NCBI RefSeq assembly: GCF_039839785.1
Contig: NZ_JBDOQT010000001.1
Coordinates: forward strand, 1,054,001-1,118,000
Length of the DNA: 64,000 nucleotides
Origin: Pelagibius sp. CAU 1746
GTDB lineage: Bacteria > Pseudomonadota > Alphaproteobacteria > Kiloniellales > Kiloniellaceae
Reading direction: 5' to 3'
The translations under genes were made by a program, and so were the position numbers. The notes under the pieces are model-generated. The model saw only the letters and a program-made list of their open reading frames with translations, was not told where the DNA came from and made no database searches. Within the stretch, counting starts at the first letter, position 1. Each line of letters begins with the position of its first letter. Below are positions 6,464 to 15,315 of this stretch, piece after piece.

Positions 6464-8083
<1,620 letters not shown>

Positions 8084-8681: not shown

Positions 8682-10634
8682 ATGCCGAGATCACAGAACG
8701 GCGACGGCAAGACCTATGGGGGCGTCGTCAAGGATCCTCTCGATCTGCGCGACTTGGTCTACGAAAGCGGCCTCTTCGAGCTGCCTTTCAGGATCGACAA
8801 CCGCGCCTTCGTGCCCGTCATCCTGGACCAGGGGCAGGAAGGCGCCTGCACGGGCTTCGGCCTGGCCGCGGTGGTGAACTTCCTGCACCACAACCGCTCC
8901 GACTTCACCGCCGCCCGGCGTAACGCCTATAAGAAGAAAGAGAACGGCGCCAGCGCGCGCATGCTCTACGAGATGGCCAAGCGCTACGACGAGTGGCAGG
9001 GCGAGAACTACGACGGTTCTTCCGTCCGCGGCGCCATGAAGGGCTGGTCGCGCCACGGCGTCTGCACCTGGGGCGACTGGCCCTACGATGCGCGCAAGCC
9101 GGGCAAGCTGACGCCGCAGCGCCAGCGCAATGCGCTGAACCAGCCGCTGGGCGCTTACTACCGGGTGCGCCATCTCTACCTCAACAACATGCAGGCCGCC
9201 CTGGCCGAGGCCGGCATTCTCTACGCCAGCGCCTCGGTCCACGAGGGCTGGCAGCAGGTCGGCAATGACGGGATCATCCCCTACAGCAAGACCAAGATCG
9301 GCGGCCATGCTTTTGCCATCGTCGGTTACGACGACCGCGGCTTCTGGATCCAGAACTCCTGGGGGCCGCGCTGGGGCGCCAAGGGCTTCTGCCACATCGG
9401 TTACGACGATTGGCTGGAAAACGCGTTCGACTGCTGGGTGGCGCGCCTCGGCGTGCCGGCGCTGAGCTTCGCCGACGGCGGCTCCCTGGTGCACGGCCGC
9501 GCCTCGGAGTTCGGCTTCATTCCCGACGAGTCGGTGGTGCTGGACACCATCCGCCCGCACTTCGTGAACCTGGGCAACGATGGCCGCTTCTCGCAGTCCG
9601 GCATCTATTCCAGCGACGAGGCGGAGGTCGACGAGGTGGTGCTCGGCGGTTTCAAGAAAACCTCCAAGGACTGGGCCGGCCCCAAGAAGCTGGCCATCTA
9701 CTGCCACGGCGGCCTCAACAACGAAAAGGCCTCGGCCTCGCGCATCGCCTCCATGCAGCCCTACTTCCTCGGCAACCAGATCTATCCGCTGCACTTCATG
9801 TGGGAGACGGGCTTCCTCGATTCCGTGAAAGGCATCGTCCAGGACGCCTTCCGCCGCGGCCGCTTCGAGGGTTGGGCCGACAAGATGAAGGACCGCTTCT
9901 TCGATTTGCTGGACGAGGGCGTGGAACTGGCCTCGCGGCCCCTGGGCAGGCCGGTGTGGAGCCAGATGAAGGACAATGCGATGCGGGCCTCCGACGCGAA
10001 CGGCGGCGCCCGCTACACCGCCGCGCGCATCGCCGCCGCCTTCGCGGAGCTGGAGGGTAAGGCGGAGCTGCATCTGGTCGGCCACAGCGCCGGCAGCATC
10101 TTCCTCGGCCACCTGCTGCCGGTGCTGGTGGAACTGGGGCTGCCGGTGAAGTCGCTGACGCTCTTCGCCCCGGCCTGCACCCTGGAGCTTTTCGACGCCA
10201 ACATCGCCAAGCACCTGGGCCGGGAGGTGGAGCGCTTCGCCCTCTTCAACCTGACCGACGAGGTGGAGCAGGACGACAACGTCGGCGGCGTCTACCACAA
10301 GAGCCTGCTCTACCTGGTGACCGAAGCCTTCGAAACGCGCCACCGCGTGCCGCTGCTGGGCATGGAAGCCGGTATCAAGGCGCGCAAGAAGACGCACAGC
10401 CCGAGCGCGGCGGAAGAGGAGGAAAGAAAGCTCGTCGAGCGGGTGCGCCGGTCCATCGGCAACGAGGTGAAGCCGGGCAACGAGAAGACGGTGGTCCGTG
10501 CCCTGGGCCTGCCCCAGGCGGTGAAGCCGAAGTCCAAGAGCACCAGCCACGGCGGCTTCGACAATGACGAGGATACCCTCAACTCCATGCTGCGCATCAT
10601 CACCGGCAAGCAGAAGCTGGCGAAGGAATTCTAG
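8682..10634 (+). CDS. Papain-like (C1) peptidase fused to an alpha/beta hydrolase
   Basis: The protein has 650 residues and no signal peptide. The first half is a C1-type cysteine peptidase: Gln52 and Cys56 in DQGQEGACTGFG, His209 in GGHAFAIVGYDD and Asn225 in IQNSWGPRWGAKGF form the expected active site. After about residue 330 comes an alpha/beta hydrolase, with LAIYCHGGLNN as the likely oxyanion-hole strand and nucleophile Ser469 in LVGHSAGSIFLG. The C-terminal 80 residues are charged and lysine-rich. The start at 8682 follows a strong site (AAGGGGAGGT). The gene heads the DUF2589 block, 378 bp upstream of the first DUF2589 gene. The substrate of either domain is unknown; the fusion is unusual in my knowledge of these families. 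Confidence 0.8.
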   Translation: MPRSQNGDGKTYGGVVKDPLDLRDLVYESGLFELPFRIDNRAFVPVILDQGQEGACTGFGLAAVVNFLHHNRSDFTAARRNAYKKKENGASARMLYEMAKRYDEWQGENYDGSSVRGAMKGWSRHGVCTWGDWPYDARKPGKLTPQRQRNALNQPLGAYYRVRHLYLNNMQAALAEAGILYASASVHEGWQQVGNDGIIPYSKTKIGGHAFAIVGYDDRGFWIQNSWGPRWGAKGFCHIGYDDWLENAFDCWVARLGVPALSFADGGSLVHGRASEFGFIPDESVVLDTIRPHFVNLGNDGRFSQSGIYSSDEAEVDEVVLGGFKKTSKDWAGPKKLAIYCHGGLNNEKASASRIASMQPYFLGNQIYPLHFMWETGFLDSVKGIVQDAFRRGRFEGWADKMKDRFFDLLDEGVELASRPLGRPVWSQMKDNAMRASDANGGARYTAARIAAAFAELEGKAELHLVGHSAGSIFLGHLLPVLVELGLPVKSLTLFAPACTLELFDANIAKHLGREVERFALFNLTDEVEQDDNVGGVYHKSLLYLVTEAFETRHRVPLLGMEAGIKARKKTHSPSAAEEEERKLVERVRRSIGNEVKPGNEKTVVRALGLPQAVKPKSKSTSHGGFDNDEDTLNSMLRIITGKQKLAKEF

Positions 10635-11012
10635 GCGGCCCGCAGTTCAGCCCGCTGGCCTCCGGCGTGAATTCTAGAAGCCGGCGGCCGCCGGGAGAAT
10701 TCGCGCGGCGAGAGGGGCGCTTCGCGTCTCTCCCGCCAAGTCGCCGGCGGCGGGGCATTGGGGTCGCCGTATTATTCAGCTTTTCAATAGTACAGTATGG
10801 TTAATTTCGGCGCCTTGATTTCTCGTGCGCCACATTAATATCACAGTATTATTCCGAGGCTCCCCGATTCGAAGTAATCCCTTTGTGCTGGAAAGCTAAT
10901 TGCTGCCGCAAAACCCGCTGGCTATACTTGCAGGCAAATAGGACGCCGCACCTAGGCTGGGGATTTTCCCGGGACCGTGTGGGGACGGTAGACAAAGGGT
11001 GGAGGGGACAGC
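10635..11012. promoter_or_regulatory. Intergenic region with AT-rich promoter candidate for the DUF2589 operon
   Basis: The 378-bp gap starts with GC-rich sequence containing an imperfect hairpin at 10707-10737 that could end the upstream transcript. It changes to AT-rich DNA at about 10765-10935. The 9-mer GTATTATTC occurs at 10769 and again at 10846 on the same strand, and CAGTAT recurs nearby, so these may be regulator sites. A purine-rich site (GGAGGGGACA) precedes the ATG at 11013. No gene is seen. Confidence 0.45.
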
Positions 11013-11615
11013 ATGGCAGTCGCAGGTGAACTTCAGGCACTTCCGTTCGGCTCGCTGATCGGCGGGCCGCTGGACGCGGCGATCGAGGCCCAGGCCCGCG
11101 CGGCCATGTCGTCGGTCAACTTCATCCGCAACATCGGCTTCGACGACAAGGGCGCGGTCCAGAACATCACCTTCACGGCCAAGAAGGGCGCGACCGAGAG
11201 CGAGATCACGGTGCCCTTGCTCACCATCGTGCCGATCCCCTTCATCCGCATCGACGAGATGACCATCGACTTCAAGGCCAACGTGTCGTCCAGCACCGAG
11301 AGCGAGGACAAGACGGTCCAGTCGGTGAACAAGCAGGCTAAGGTCAACGCCAGCGCGCGCTACCTTTTCTTCAAGGCGAGCCTGGAAGCCTCCATTTCCT
11401 CCAAGAAGGATTCGGAGTCGACCAAGAATTCCAAGTACGCGGTGGAGACCACCATCGACGTGCACGTCCACGCGGTTCAGGACGAACTGCCCGCGGGCCT
11501 CGCCAAGATGCTGAACATCCTGGCCGATACCATCCAGGCGCCCCCGGCGGTGGCCGAGCAGCCGGCCGGCGGCGGCGGCGGTGGCGGCGGTGGGGGCCGC
11601 AGCGGGGGAAACTGA
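11013..11615 (+). CDS. DUF2589 domain protein, first paralogue
   Basis: The 200-residue protein matches the DUF2589 pattern as I know it: helical start GSLIGGPLDAAIEAQARAAM, then IGFDD, the strand-rich core with PIPFIRIDEMTIDFKANV at 74-91, and VHAVQDELPAGLAKMLNIL near 150-170. It has no signal peptide or membrane helix. The tail is almost pure glycine (residues 187-196). DUF2589 has no established function to my knowledge. It is followed 188 bp later by a gene whose product shares the P-[IV]-P motif, and then by a second DUF2589 gene. Confidence 0.88.
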   Translation: MAVAGELQALPFGSLIGGPLDAAIEAQARAAMSSVNFIRNIGFDDKGAVQNITFTAKKGATESEITVPLLTIVPIPFIRIDEMTIDFKANVSSSTESEDKTVQSVNKQAKVNASARYLFFKASLEASISSKKDSESTKNSKYAVETTIDVHVHAVQDELPAGLAKMLNILADTIQAPPAVAEQPAGGGGGGGGGGRSGGN

Positions 11616-11803
11616 TCGCGCTGGGGCCGCCGGAAGACGGCAGCTTGCCGGGCCGTCCCAGCGTCCTCACGCGTTTCCGCCGGGTGCAGACCCGTCTGTG
11701 GCGCGGGGTGCTGGGCTGGCTGGCTGGCGGAACGCTCTCCGGCGTAGTCTAGCGGAACGGCGGGGCGGAGAGCCGGCGCCGAGGGGAGGCAAAGCAGGAC
11801 CGA

Positions 11804-12625
11804 ATGGCCGATCTTCAGCAGATCGTAGGCGCAATTCTGCGCGACCTGGCGAAGGCGCGTTTCAGCGCCGATCTCTATTCACGCTCGATCTCGCGCTACT
11901 ACGAGAACGACTATCTTCTGCGCCGCTTTCCGGTGCCGCGCGCCGACGTGGAGGAGGTCGAACTGGATCTCAAGTTCTCCATCGCCGGGGTGCCCGACAG
12001 CGAGGTCAATCACGAAAGCCAGGAAGCCAACGCGGCGGTGCTCTTCGAGCGCTCGGTGGAGCGTCTTGTCGCCACCTTCCTGGATATCGCGCGGGCGCGC
12101 AACGAAAGCGACGAAGCCTTCCGTGAGACCTGGTGGACCTACCTGACCAAGGGAACCAACTCCTCCGCGCTGCGCATCGAGATGCGCCAGAAGGTGCTGC
12201 GCTATTTCATCGAGTCCTACACGCACCTGATCGACGACGAAGGCAGGTTCAACGCCGCGCTCGCCCTGCAGGAACTGGAGCGGCCGATCCGCTGGGCCAT
12301 GGAGCCTTACGCCAAGGAGGCCTACACCGCCCCTGGCAGCGAGGCCGAGCAGCAGATGAAACGGGACCTGCGCGCCATGGTCTTGCCGCTGATGGAAGAG
12401 GGCGACATCCGTCAGGCGGTCGGCGCCATGACGCCCGCAATCGAAACCATCTGGCAGGGCAACAGCGATGCGCGCCTGGAAATCATGGTGGAAGGCGGCC
12501 AGCTCTCGCAGCTCGGCGAGGCGGCGCTGTCCAGCGTGAAGATCAAGGCGGTGGTGCGCAACATGGTGTGGACCGAGGTGAAGGTCGGCGAGAGGACCAC
12601 GCGCCACGCCCTCACGTCGGAATAG
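11804..12625 (+). CDS. Unknown DUF2589-associated protein sharing the PxP-strand motif
   Basis: I do not recognise a named family for this 273-residue protein. It opens with a helix (LQQIVGAILRDLAKARFSAD) and then PVPRADVEEVELDLKFSI at residues 43-60. That segment aligns position by position with the P-I-P motif segments of both flanking DUF2589 proteins. The middle is helical and charged. The C-terminal 40 residues (SSVKIKAVVRNMVWTEVKV) look like alternating beta strands. No signal peptide or membrane segment is visible. The start follows GAGGGGAGGC by 16 bp. It lies between two DUF2589 genes and probably works with them, perhaps as a structural partner. Confidence 0.75.
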   Translation: MADLQQIVGAILRDLAKARFSADLYSRSISRYYENDYLLRRFPVPRADVEEVELDLKFSIAGVPDSEVNHESQEANAAVLFERSVERLVATFLDIARARNESDEAFRETWWTYLTKGTNSSALRIEMRQKVLRYFIESYTHLIDDEGRFNAALALQELERPIRWAMEPYAKEAYTAPGSEAEQQMKRDLRAMVLPLMEEGDIRQAVGAMTPAIETIWQGNSDARLEIMVEGGQLSQLGEAALSSVKIKAVVRNMVWTEVKVGERTTRHALTSE

Positions 12626-12649
12626 GGGCATCGGAGTAGGGAGGGCAAT

Positions 12650-13417
12650 ATGTCTGACGACACCGACAAGGCCGCCGCAGCCTCCGGAAGCGGCGGGGCC
12701 GAAAGCGGTGGGGCCGCAAGCGGTGGGAACGGCAACGGCGGAAGCGGCAACGGCGTCCTGCCGGGCGGCGCCCCTGAGCTGCCGGAGCCGCAGAGCGGCG
12801 TGCTGTCGCTGGCGCAGCTTATCGGCGCGCCGATCCATGCGCTGGTCGATGCCGAGGCGCAGTCGGCCATGGCCACGGCCCGCTTCGTGCGCGCCGTCGG
12901 CTTCACCGGCCCGAAAGAAGGCGAGCCCGGCGGCATGGGCGACCTCGGCGACCTGCAGATGGCGCGCTTCACCCGCAGGCGCCGCAGCGCCGACGGCACG
13001 GAGGAAGACGTGGAGGTGCAGATCCCGCTGCTCTCCATGCTTCCGATCCCGGCGCTGCAGATCAAGGACGCGGAGCTGGACTACACCGTGAAGATCGTCC
13101 AGACCGAGGCCCTGCCCCAGCGCCAGGCGGAGGTGAACCAGCTCATCGAAGCGCGGGGCGCCGGGCCCTTGCGGGAGCCGCCGGCCACCTTGCGCGCCGC
13201 CTTCGCGCGCGAGCCGCGCGCGGGCGACCGCCGCTCCGTCGACATGCTGGTGAAGATGAAGCTGCGCATCGAGCAGGCCGACATGCCCGGCGGCTTGGCG
13301 CAGTTGCTGGCCTTGGCGGCGGAGACCACGCGGCAGACGCCGCTGCCGCCGCCGCCCTCCGAGACGCCGCCGGCTGCGGCGGGCAATCGCGATCGCCGGA
13401 ACCGCGGCAATGGCTGA
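12650..13417 (+). CDS. DUF2589 domain protein, second paralogue with Gly/Ser-rich N-terminal extension
   Basis: The 255-residue protein repeats the DUF2589 layout: LIGAPIHALVDAEAQSAM, VRAVGF, PLLSMLPIPALQIKDAELDY at about 126-145, and DMPGGLAQLLALAAET near the end. It differs from the first paralogue by about 45 extra N-terminal residues rich in Gly, Ser and Asn, and by charged insertions in the core. The tail is proline- and arginine-rich. The gene starts 24 bp after the preceding stop, with GGGAGGG before the ATG. Its stop region overlaps the next start by 8 bp, so the genes form an operon. Confidence 0.85.
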   Translation: MSDDTDKAAAASGSGGAESGGAASGGNGNGGSGNGVLPGGAPELPEPQSGVLSLAQLIGAPIHALVDAEAQSAMATARFVRAVGFTGPKEGEPGGMGDLGDLQMARFTRRRRSADGTEEDVEVQIPLLSMLPIPALQIKDAELDYTVKIVQTEALPQRQAEVNQLIEARGAGPLREPPATLRAAFAREPRAGDRRSVDMLVKMKLRIEQADMPGGLAQLLALAAETTRQTPLPPPPSETPPAAAGNRDRRNRGNG

Positions 13418-13676
13418 GCCGCAACCCGATGCGACGACGCCGGGCCGCATCCCCTGTCCCGACTGCGGCCAGGCGCTGGCGCTGCCGATCGCCGCGGTGT
13501 TGAGCGGTCAGCCGATCGTCTGCGCCGCCTGCGGTCTGGAGCTTCAGGCAAAGCGGGAAGATTCGGCCGAGGCCCTGGCGGCGCTGGGGCGCTGGTACGA
13601 GGAGACCGCGACGGCCCGCGCCGCCGCCGCCGGCGCTCGATCCTCGCCGCCCAAGTCCTCCGGCCGCCGCCGCTAG
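13410..13676 (+). CDS. Small zinc-ribbon protein
   Basis: The 88-residue protein has two CxxC knuckles, Cys16/Cys19 in CPDCG and Cys38/Cys41 in CAACG, 19 residues apart, as in a zinc ribbon. The remainder is alanine-rich and ends in a basic tail (SSGRRR). It overlaps the end of the second DUF2589 gene by 8 bp, and the next gene begins 2 bp after its stop, so translation is probably coupled. The first half resembles MJ0042-like ribbons. The role is unknown; a binding or adaptor function is a guess. Confidence 0.7.
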   Translation: MAEPQPDATTPGRIPCPDCGQALALPIAAVLSGQPIVCAACGLELQAKREDSAEALAALGRWYEETATARAAAAGARSSPPKSSGRRR

Positions 13677-13678
13677 CC

Positions 13679-14671
13679 TTGTCGGTCTACGAAAGCCGCT
13701 TTCGTCCCTGGCTGGACGATCCCGCGGGGTGGCCTTCGTGGAGTCTGACGCCGCAAGAGGCGGCGGACTTCGCAGCCGATCTCGCCGCCGCCGGCGCCGA
13801 GGCGGGGGAGCGGCTCGTCAATCTCTACGGCGAGCAGGCCGACACCTTCGGTGCGGCGGATCTTGCCGCGGCCCTGGCGGCGCAGCCCCTGGACGAGGCG
13901 GACCTGCAGGCCGTGGCCCTCTCCATCGCTGCTGCCGACTACCACCGCCGGCGGCTGACGGTGCCGCGGGCCGCCGCCGGCGGCCTGACCAACCCAACGA
14001 ACAAGCCGGTCTGGGAAGCGCTCCGGCCCTACCTGCTGGCGCGCTGCCGGGCGGCGCTGGCGGGGGGCGGCGCCGAGGCGCTGCAGTGGCGGGCGATCCT
14101 GGGGCGGGTGCCCGACAACTGGCTGCCGGCGGCGCAGCTCACCCGCGCCCTGCAGCAGGAACTCAACGCCAGCGGCCTGTTCTCCGAGGTCGAGGTGACC
14201 CTGGAGCTGAATCCGCCGGTGGCCGGCGGCGGGCGTTGGATCGCCATGCAGTGCCGCGGCGCTCTGGCCGAGTTGCGCAAACGTCTCCGGGAACGCGCAC
14301 CCTGCCTGGTGGAGCTGATCCGCGATGCCGAGGATGCGGCGCCGCAGTGGGTGGTGGCCTGGCGCCTGGAGGACGAGCTGAGCCTGGGCCGCGACGGGGT
14401 GGAACGCGTGCGTCTCTGGGTCTACGACCCGCGCCGCGGCGCGGTGCCGGTCAGCCTGCGCGTTACCTTGGCCGACGACCGTATCCAGGCGGTGGAGAGC
14501 CCCGCGCCGGAGGCCGGCGCGGCGGTGAAGGCCCTGCGCCTCGTCAAGCTGGAGCCCGGCGACCCGCCGCGCTTCGGCTGGCGCCGCTGGTTCGGGCGCG
14601 CCCACCCCTGGGGCGTCTTCTGGTGGCTGAAGCGGCTCTGGCTGCTGCGCTTCGGCCGCGCTCCCGCTTGA
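13679..14671 (+). CDS. Hypothetical protein, last gene of the DUF2589 operon
   Basis: The 330-residue protein starts at a TTG only 2 bp after the zinc-ribbon stop. I recognise no domain. The N-terminal 100 residues are alanine-rich helices. About residues 150-250 look alpha/beta, with LFSEVEVTLELNPPV and VVAWRLEDELSLGRD. The C-terminus is tryptophan- and arginine-rich (WRRWFGRAHPWGVFWWLKRL) and may form an amphipathic membrane-contacting helix. No signal peptide is visible. Tight coupling suggests it works with the DUF2589 proteins. Confidence 0.65.
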   Translation: MSVYESRFRPWLDDPAGWPSWSLTPQEAADFAADLAAAGAEAGERLVNLYGEQADTFGAADLAAALAAQPLDEADLQAVALSIAAADYHRRRLTVPRAAAGGLTNPTNKPVWEALRPYLLARCRAALAGGGAEALQWRAILGRVPDNWLPAAQLTRALQQELNASGLFSEVEVTLELNPPVAGGGRWIAMQCRGALAELRKRLRERAPCLVELIRDAEDAAPQWVVAWRLEDELSLGRDGVERVRLWVYDPRRGAVPVSLRVTLADDRIQAVESPAPEAGAAVKALRLVKLEPGDPPRFGWRRWFGRAHPWGVFWWLKRLWLLRFGRAPA

Positions 14672-14679
14672 GGCGCCGC

Positions 14680-15315
14680 TCAGGAAAGTCCGGCCTGTAC
14701 GAAGCGGACTTCTCGATCCTCGCCCTGCTCGCCGCTCTTGCAAAAGAAGAAGAGTATGATCGCGAAGACGGCCGTGGCGGTGACCACGAGCGCCAACTGC
14801 AAGAACTGAACAGGCAGGGGAATGCACAACGCCACGAGCTCCGGCAGCACGATCGAAGGCCACAGCAGCATGACGAAGAAGCTGGTCGCTTGGTTCACTT
14901 TCGAAACCGAATAGGGGTATCCGCCGGTCAGGCTGAGCGGCCTGAAAAGTTCCTTGGAGATTACGGTTCGGTAGAGGGGGCCGACTTGATCGTCTGAAAG
15001 ACAGTCGACGTGGCGTTCCCAGTTCTGTTGCCAGTACTTGCTGCCCCGGTTGACGAGGAACCAGCCTATGGAAAGAAGGAAACCGATGCAGCCGACGATG
15101 ATCGTGAGATGGACATTGCCGGGTCCCGAACTGGCGAGAGCGAAGTACCCCGCCAAGGTTGAGGCGATCAGCGTCCAGAAATAGGTGGCGCGGCGCCAGT
15201 AGAGCCCGATCTCGAACTTTCGGATGTCGAGAGCGAAATCCAGGGCCCTCTTCCTATCGATGGTATCGCTCGGGAATGCCGCTGCATAGGCATGAATATC
15301 GCGAATCTTGGTCAA
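14680..15315 (-). CDS. RipA-family-like membrane protein
   Basis: The 211-residue protein has a conserved DIRKFEIGLYWRRATYFWTL segment at residues 30-49, followed by hydrophobic helices at about 45-65, 70-88, 145-165 and 170-190. This pattern matches what is annotated as the RipA family of octameric membrane proteins, named after a Francisella factor. The start is TTG at 15313-15315 preceded by GGGGAG at good spacing; no ATG fits the family N-terminus better. It converges on the DUF2589 operon with 8 bp between stops. Function is unclear. Confidence 0.65.
   Translation of the reverse strand: MTKIRDIHAYAAAFPSDTIDRKRALDFALDIRKFEIGLYWRRATYFWTLIASTLAGYFALASSGPGNVHLTIIVGCIGFLLSIGWFLVNRGSKYWQQNWERHVDCLSDDQVGPLYRTVISKELFRPLSLTGGYPYSVSKVNQATSFFVMLLWPSIVLPELVALCIPLPVQFLQLALVVTATAVFAIILFFFCKSGEQGEDREVRFVQAGLS

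What the first reader, a model, noticed from the sequence alone, without database searches (positions are those of the whole stretch)
8682..14671. Protease-hydrolase fusion next to a DUF2589 pair operon: candidate undescribed system
The block combines a papain-like peptidase fused to an alpha/beta hydrolase, two DUF2589 paralogues, an intervening protein with a shared motif, a zinc ribbon and a last gene of unknown type. The four genes from 12650 onward are nearly contiguous. DUF2589 has no known function to my knowledge, and none of the proteins looks exported. A multi-gene system is plausible; its role cannot be read from the sequence.
Basis: partly seen in the sequence, partly recalled or inferred. 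Interest (0 to 1): 0.78.

Follow-up and report, generated by a model that had tools for sequence, protein, structure and literature searches.

The report
Conserved DUF2589 operon, function unknown
A marine bacterium carries a small gene set built from an unstudied protein family, and the same four genes in the same order occur in several bacterial phyla, in some of them beside enzymes that cut cell walls, so it looks like a real but undescribed bacterial system.

Summary
The block is real. The window lies in a Pelagibius-like genome. Two proteins are DUF2589 (PF11655), the intervening one (X) is a divergent DUF2589 relative, and a two-CxxC zinc ribbon and a fast-evolving last gene (Y) follow.

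D1-X-D2-zinc ribbon is kept in order in 62 of 77 loci found with an X-type query, in six phyla and a SAR324 bin. No library or held paper searched here describes it as a system.

The papain-hydrolase fusion is not core: it lies within 5.4 kb of the operon in 4 Pelagibius genomes, is missing in 3 others that have the operon, and occurs in 3 relatives without DUF2589.

Elsewhere DUF2589 genes sit beside phage-type murein hydrolases of eight Pfam families, or peptidases and lipases. In 44 selected genomes, 16 of 18 PF11860 muramidases lie at the DUF2589 locus (28 genomes have none). In a Bacteroidota sample, apart from its chosen centre genome, 0 of 23 do. In unselected Pseudomonadota 3 of 8 loci have a murein-hydrolase-type neighbour, without a matched control.

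Best reading: a membrane-docked DUF2589 assembly that deploys a co-encoded hydrolase. The conserved system is near certain; the function is inferred (about 0.35). No murein hydrolase was found in the window.

The parts
8682..10634 (+). Papain-type (C1) peptidase fused to a GHSAG hydrolase-like half; accessory neighbour, not a core member
   Evidence: Peptidase_C1 E 2e-11; GHSAG motif; hydrolase half no Pfam match; 7 of 61 genomes of the order, 3 of them without a DUF2589 match
11013..11615 (+). D1, DUF2589 protein (200 aa)
   Evidence: PF11655 E 3.8e-33; in a 70-row alignment the 18 invariant columns hold no H, C, D, E or K, though K88, K131, D133, E145 and D149 are at 90% or more
11804..12625 (+). 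X, divergent DUF2589 relative with a helical insertion (273 aa)
   Evidence: profile match to D1 over ~65 residues, E 4.8e-5; AlphaFold model pLDDT 87.7, pTM 0.61: N-terminal helix, strand, helical block about 70-218, strands
12650..13417 (+). D2, second DUF2589 protein (255 aa)
   Evidence: PF11655 E 1.2e-17
13410..13676 (+). Small zinc-ribbon protein with two CxxC pairs (88 aa), overlaps the end of D2
   Evidence: two CxxC 21-23 residues apart in 68 of 68 relatives; Pfam zinc-ribbon matches below cut-off
13679..14671 (+). Y, fast-evolving last gene (330 aa, TTG start) with a Trp/Arg-rich C-terminus
   Evidence: no family match; found in the genus, L061, L063, L064, L065; Trp/Arg-rich C-terminus by eye in 9 of 11 members, weaker in L064 and L065; dN/dS 0.54-0.67

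Best explanation
11013-14671 is one operon for a conserved protein assembly. D1, X and D2 are three paralogous, probably non-enzymatic DUF2589-type subunits that build a cytoplasmic complex; the zinc ribbon is a small constant subunit or adaptor; the last gene (Y here, an unrelated protein of about 160 residues in Bacteroidales) docks the complex on the membrane through a Trp/Arg-rich or basic amphipathic segment. The assembly's job is to hold and deploy a co-encoded, signal-less hydrolase: murein hydrolases in some hosts, peptidases or lipases in others, and in this Pelagibius perhaps the neighbouring papain-hydrolase fusion. It would work like a lysis or effector-deployment module. Shown: the conserved gene order, the paralogy, selection on the proteins, and recurring hydrolase neighbours in some lineages. 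Inferred: complex formation, membrane docking, handling of the hydrolase.
For: Gene order D1-X-D2-Zn in 62 of 77 loci, median gaps 28.5, 12.5 and 6 bases; pairwise distances of the four genes correlate (r 0.34-0.89, 0 of 999 permutations as high), as co-inherited genes would. Rows from Pseudomonadota, Bacteroidota, Verrucomicrobiota, Cyanobacteriota, Nitrospinota, Thermodesulfobacteriota and a SAR324 bin. No invariant H, C, D, E or K in D1. Pfam matches within about 3 kb of DUF2589-cluster genes to eight families of murein-hydrolase type (activity recalled from the family): PF11860, PF00959, PF00182, PF01183, PF05838, PF08291, PF13539, PF05257, the last seven at one or two loci each. PF11860 in 44 selected DUF2589-positive genomes: 18 matches in 16 genomes, 16 of them at the DUF2589 locus (positions matched). 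In the 8 unselected Pseudomonadota loci other than the window's, 3 have such a neighbour among the three nearest genes (L043 and L046 GH19, L048 phage lysozyme). Among 150 flanking genes of 50 loci the commonest families were LytTR 11, Muramidase 6, DUF2589 6, PG_binding_1 5, PG_binding_3 5, then Peptidase_C1, Response_reg, Acetyltransf_1 and AAA_24 with 3 each. Trp/Arg-rich C-terminus of Y.
Against: No murein hydrolase among the 8 window proteins scanned. 28 of the 44 genomes have no PF11860 at all. In a sample of 296 Bacteroidota 19 have DUF2589 and 22 have PF11860, 5 both; only 1 of 25 PF11860 matches is at a DUF2589 locus, and that is the centre genome, chosen because it has it: 0 of 23 elsewhere. 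Loci with the full core and no murein-hydrolase neighbour by eye exist (L068, L123, L128). No matched control loci were scanned for the other families. An archaeon, A. fulgidus, has a run of DUF2589-related genes and archaea lack bacterial murein (recalled), so a murein role cannot be universal. No fold match for X; the D1 model is poor. The 50 loci were hand-picked and include loci already known to carry these enzymes.
Confidence: 0.35

Rival explanations
1. A cellular scaffold or compartment of DUF2589 paralogues with a housekeeping or metabolic role; hydrolases are incidental, lineage-specific neighbours.
For: Tree rows largely cluster by phylum, as for old, mostly vertical genes; DUF2589-related genes in an archaeon are up-regulated on lactate (one passage); in the Bacteroidota sample no muramidase outside the centre genome is at a DUF2589 locus.
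Against: Presence is patchy: 9 of 398 Pseudomonadota, 19 of 296 Bacteroidota, 3 of 194 Cyanobacteriota, each count with its positive centre genome. Eight hydrolase families recur beside DUF2589 clusters, and 16 of 18 muramidases in one selected set are at the locus.
Confidence: 0.3
2. A conflict module: an anti-phage or inter-bacterial system in which DUF2589 proteins sense or carry, and the partner enzyme (protease, lipase, murein hydrolase, transferase) kills.
For: Patchy presence, copies on records listed as plasmids (5 records), swapped enzymes of unrelated families including CHAT, caspase, LCAT, patatin, trypsin-type and subtilase, DUF2589 fused to DUF6734, fast-evolving Y.
Against: No PADLOC match in 7 proteins of the window. 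For 150 flanking genes 45 PADLOC models matched; of the 25 shown none matched more than one member. The single hits include phospholipase, CHAT, subtilase and Jet-type models, so the conflict reading is not excluded.
Confidence: 0.2
3. Cargo or adaptor genes of a contractile injection particle encoded elsewhere in the genome.
For: Hydrolase and toxin-like neighbours are typical cargo (recalled); 12 of 37 DUF2589-positive genomes have a Phage_sheath_1 match over cut-off.
Against: 23 of 37 genomes, among them 11 of the 12 Bacteroidales tested, have no match; the window's own genome has only one below cut-off. Type VI sheaths, which this family does not stand for (recalled), were not searched.
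Confidence: 0.05

Closest known systems
DUF2589, Pfam PF11655
   Same: D1 and D2 are members by score
   Different: The family is described only as of unknown function; the constant X partner matches no family, and the ribbon only below cut-offs
Type 10 secretion (phage-derived lysis modules that release folded toxins; T10SS, PMC10847048, abstract and outline seen; holin plus endolysin make-up recalled and from listing)
   Same: At other DUF2589 loci a phage-type murein hydrolase lies next to proteins without clear export signals; one DUF2589 locus (L142) also has an SpvB/TcdB-domain protein
   Different: No clear holin-like protein in the core; the core proteins match no phage family; no endolysin found in the window
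Papain family C1 (PF00112; closest solved chain 3ois_A)
   Same: Peptidase half of the fusion matches, with Cys, His and Asn motifs in sequence
   Different: Fused to a GHSAG hydrolase-like half; encoded beside, not within, the core operon

Membership tests
DUF2589 (PF11655) | score over Pfam's gathering cut-off (23 bits) | tested here: met
   D1 115.4, D2 65.1 bits
DUF2589 (PF11655) | X as a member by score | tested here: not met
   no PF11655 match; only a profile-profile match over ~65 residues
Peptidase family C1 | score over cut-off and catalytic motif | tested here: met
   44.8 against 20.7 bits; QGQEGACTGFG around the Cys, GHAFAIVGYD and NSWG in sequence; motif meanings recalled
Alpha/beta hydrolase | family match plus GxSxG | tested here: inconclusive
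   GHSAG present, no Pfam match
Type 10 secretion system / phage lysis cassette | endolysin in the locus | tested here: not met
   none among 8 window proteins scanned; endolysin-type families present at some other DUF2589 loci
Type 10 secretion system / phage lysis cassette | holin-like membrane protein | tested here: inconclusive
   hydropathy only: X, Y and Zn rarely or never reach 1.6; 68 of 167 D1-type ORFs do
Known anti-phage defence system | match to a PADLOC model | tested here: not met
   0 of 7 proteins of the window
Contractile injection system | sheath gene in the genome | tested here: inconclusive
   Phage_sheath_1 only: own genome 28.9 bits, below cut-off 31.4; 12 of 37 DUF2589-positive genomes over cut-off; type VI sheath not searched
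Phage protein family | match to a PHROG | tested here: not met
   D1, D2 and Y none up to E 0.1; X 0.019 and Zn 0.003 at best

The most novel reading that the evidence does not exclude
DUF2589 operons encode a new class of membrane-docked protein machine, built from three paralogues and a zinc ribbon, that moves or activates a signal-less murein hydrolase or other hydrolase without a holin: a holin-independent lysis or effector-deployment system shared by several phyla.
Probability: 0.2. Interest if true: 0.9.

Novelty: categorically new. Interest (0 to 1): 0.67.

Why it matters
A four-gene unit kept in order from alphaproteobacteria to gut Bacteroidales, Akkermansia and cyanobacteria is under real selection, yet its main family has one passing mention in the papers held. 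If it deploys murein hydrolases or other hydrolases, it would be a lysis or delivery route unlike holins, contractile particles or known secretion systems, and it could be tested in commensal gut bacteria. The label 'categorically new' means that no known kind tested here fits; with the function unproven it may still prove to be an odd form of a known kind.

Tried and rejected
Structure: the D1 model was too poor to search (pLDDT 56.3). The X model gave no convincing match: best Z 5.9 to CNOT1, on the helical block only; Foldseek best E 0.41. No solved relative of D1; two weak hits for X, E 0.022 and 0.84. A pore-forming reading of D1 (Ser/Thr-rich loops between long strands) came to mind from recall; no call supports it.

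Viral origin: PHROGs had no D1 or D2 match. Of 4 viral contigs, L132 looks like Bacteroides-type DNA with the operon and L133-L135 share only a short motif. The one phage-collection hit, MT839761, is an unannotated faecal scaffold with the Bacteroidales-type operon.

Selection in the samples: the query came from D1 proteins with X beside them; 80 of 238 encoding stretches were kept, the best-scoring ones, and the 77 loci are not dereplicated. The 44 genomes are a chosen part of those loci; contig identity there was inferred from matching positions, not names. The samples each contain a known positive centre genome. The 50 loci and the 37 genomes were hand-picked. L034-L039 repeat the genus genomes among L056-L062 and were left out of counts. 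In the Peptidase_C1 search (50 genomes) I judged only the 13 matches with E of 1e-7 or better: 3 lie at DUF2589 loci; a fourth whose position could have fitted L087 was checked and is not there.

Promoter and terminator scan: 0 promoters, 6 terminators against 5.0 expected. The 8xMP literature search listed 6 papers, none relevant by title.
Full report
What is there. The window is positions 1054001-1118000 of contig 1 of a 4.66 Mb genome, whose nearest named relative by these genes is Pelagibius marinus. Six genes run on the plus strand: a papain-hydrolase fusion 8682-10634, D1 11013-11615, X 11804-12625, D2 12650-13417, a zinc ribbon 13410-13676 and Y 13679-14671. D1 and D2 are DUF2589 by score and the fusion's first half is Peptidase_C1. 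X, Y and the ribbon reach no cut-off in Pfam or NCBIfam and no PADLOC match. X aligns with DUF2589 over its first 65 residues, and its model shows an N-terminal helix and strands interrupted by a helical block. So the operon encodes three DUF2589-type proteins. The ribbon's two CxxC pairs are kept in 68 of 68 relatives. All genes show dN/dS below 1, Y the highest at 0.54-0.67.

Distribution. DUF2589 occurs in 9 of 61 genomes of the order (7 of 8 in the genus, counting the window's own), 9 of 398 sampled Pseudomonadota, 19 of 296 Bacteroidota and 3 of 194 Cyanobacteriota; each of the last three counts includes the known positive genome at its centre. Two or more matches are found in 9 of 9, 8 of 9, 8 of 19 and 3 of 3 positive genomes, some being pieces of one ORF. 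A pattern scan of one genome for each of 84,980 species, with an alignment of D1 proteins that have X beside them, found 238 encoding stretches; the best 80 gave 76 loci. In 62 of these 76 plus the window the order is D1-X-D2-zinc ribbon with short gaps; the 15 others include short contigs or contig ends, expanded arrays and shorter forms. In the samples not chosen for X, the full four-gene order is in 3 of 3 cyanobacterial genomes and 2 of 19 Bacteroidota (one centre genome in each), while X accompanies D1 in 12 of 19 Bacteroidota and 2 of 8 other Pseudomonadota. A second form, D1-X followed by a helical protein of about 190 residues, is common there. Sixteen of the 76 named loci hold six or more DUF2589-type ORFs. 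The concatenated tree (quick method, long branches present) clusters largely by phylum.

The fusion. Among 61 genomes of the order it is in 7: four of the window's genus, each with the fusion within 5.4 kb of the operon, and three others with no DUF2589 match whose flanking stretches hold no operon gene (two of those contigs are only about 5 kb). It is a separate conserved protein that sometimes sits next door. Papain-type peptidases without the GHSAG half lie beside DUF2589 in L107, L124 and L125; in 50 DUF2589-positive genomes these three are among the 13 Peptidase_C1 matches with E of 1e-7 or better.

Enzyme partners. Beside DUF2589 clusters at other loci Pfam finds Muramidase PF11860 (mostly with PG_binding_1), phage lysozyme (L048, L053), GH19 (L043, L046), GH25 (L087, L109), GH108 (L084), two M15 peptidase families (L119, L143) and CHAP (L140), and also trypsin-type, subtilase, caspase, CHAT, LCAT and patatin proteins. 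The murein-hydrolase-type proteins mostly start without an obvious signal sequence, by eye; the GH25 protein of L087 has a hydrophobic N-terminus. In many gut Bacteroidales the layout is LytTR regulator, D1, X, D2, ribbon, a protein of about 160 residues with a basic, by eye amphipathic N-terminus, muramidase; the three flanking families were seen in 23, 12 and 18 loci. In 44 chosen genomes 16 of 18 PF11860 matches are at the locus, at most about 3.1 kb away; one of the 16 has an internal stop; 28 of the 44 have none. Against this, in 296 Bacteroidota only one of 25 matches is at a DUF2589 locus, in the centre genome itself, so the partnership is lineage-bound. In the 8 Pseudomonadota loci other than the window's, 3 have a murein-hydrolase-type neighbour among the three nearest genes; no matched control was run. 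The window's genes scanned include no murein hydrolase.

Reading. D1 has no invariant H, C, D, E or K, the paralogues lie together in the core loci, and the last gene carries a Trp/Arg-rich segment. A structural assembly, docked on the membrane and serving a swappable hydrolase, fits best, but complex formation and function are inferred. Tests of membership in known kinds failed or were inconclusive: no PADLOC match, no PHROG worth the name, no phage-type sheath match in 23 of 37 genomes, no clear holin.

Literature. DUF2589 appears in one held paper, for a run AF0414-AF0417 in Archaeoglobus fulgidus that is up-regulated on lactate (passage seen); PF11655 in none. Two wider term searches gave 11 papers (8 listed, none opened, none on the system by title) and 0 papers. 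Subscription papers and preprints were not searchable.

Noticed in passing
window 14680-15315 (-): A convergent membrane-protein gene, 8xMP family PF24838 (E 1.4e-33), directly after Y; no other match among the ORFs of the 103 sources searched (for the family).
   Followed up: partly
window 6464-8083 (-): PAS-HisKA-HATPase sensor kinase divergent from the fusion gene.
   Followed up: no
L072 15242-17080; L076 8224-9900; L110 5324-9100: DUF2589 fused to other domains in Bacteroidales: DUF6734 (L072 E 1.5e-11; L076 below cut-off) and, by eye, GNAT-like repeats in L110.
   Followed up: partly
L142 2622-6818: An SpvB/TcdB-domain ORF lies just after a D1-X-helical-protein set in a Bacteroidota contig.
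   Followed up: no
L132 2956-4956: D2 ends early and an integrase-like ORF (by eye) follows, as if an element had inserted into D2.
   Followed up: no
L133 7806-8276; L134 7815-8306; L135 7785-8249: Viral contigs encode a short protein holding the DUF2589-type stretch VPLLTIVPIPYI and a second similar copy; origin of the likeness unknown.
   Followed up: no
L106 9378-9953: A gene between LytTR and D1 has a weak, below-cut-off Scabin-like match (ADP-ribosyltransferase type, recalled), E 9e-4.
   Followed up: no
L045, L048, L050, L051, L052 (and L046 by eye): A third form: DUF2589 pair with a conserved partner of about 90 residues, seen in Vibrio plasmids, a deltaproteobacterial plasmid and other Pseudomonadota.
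   Followed up: partly
window 1-64000: No tRNA or tmRNA gene in the window.
   Followed up: no
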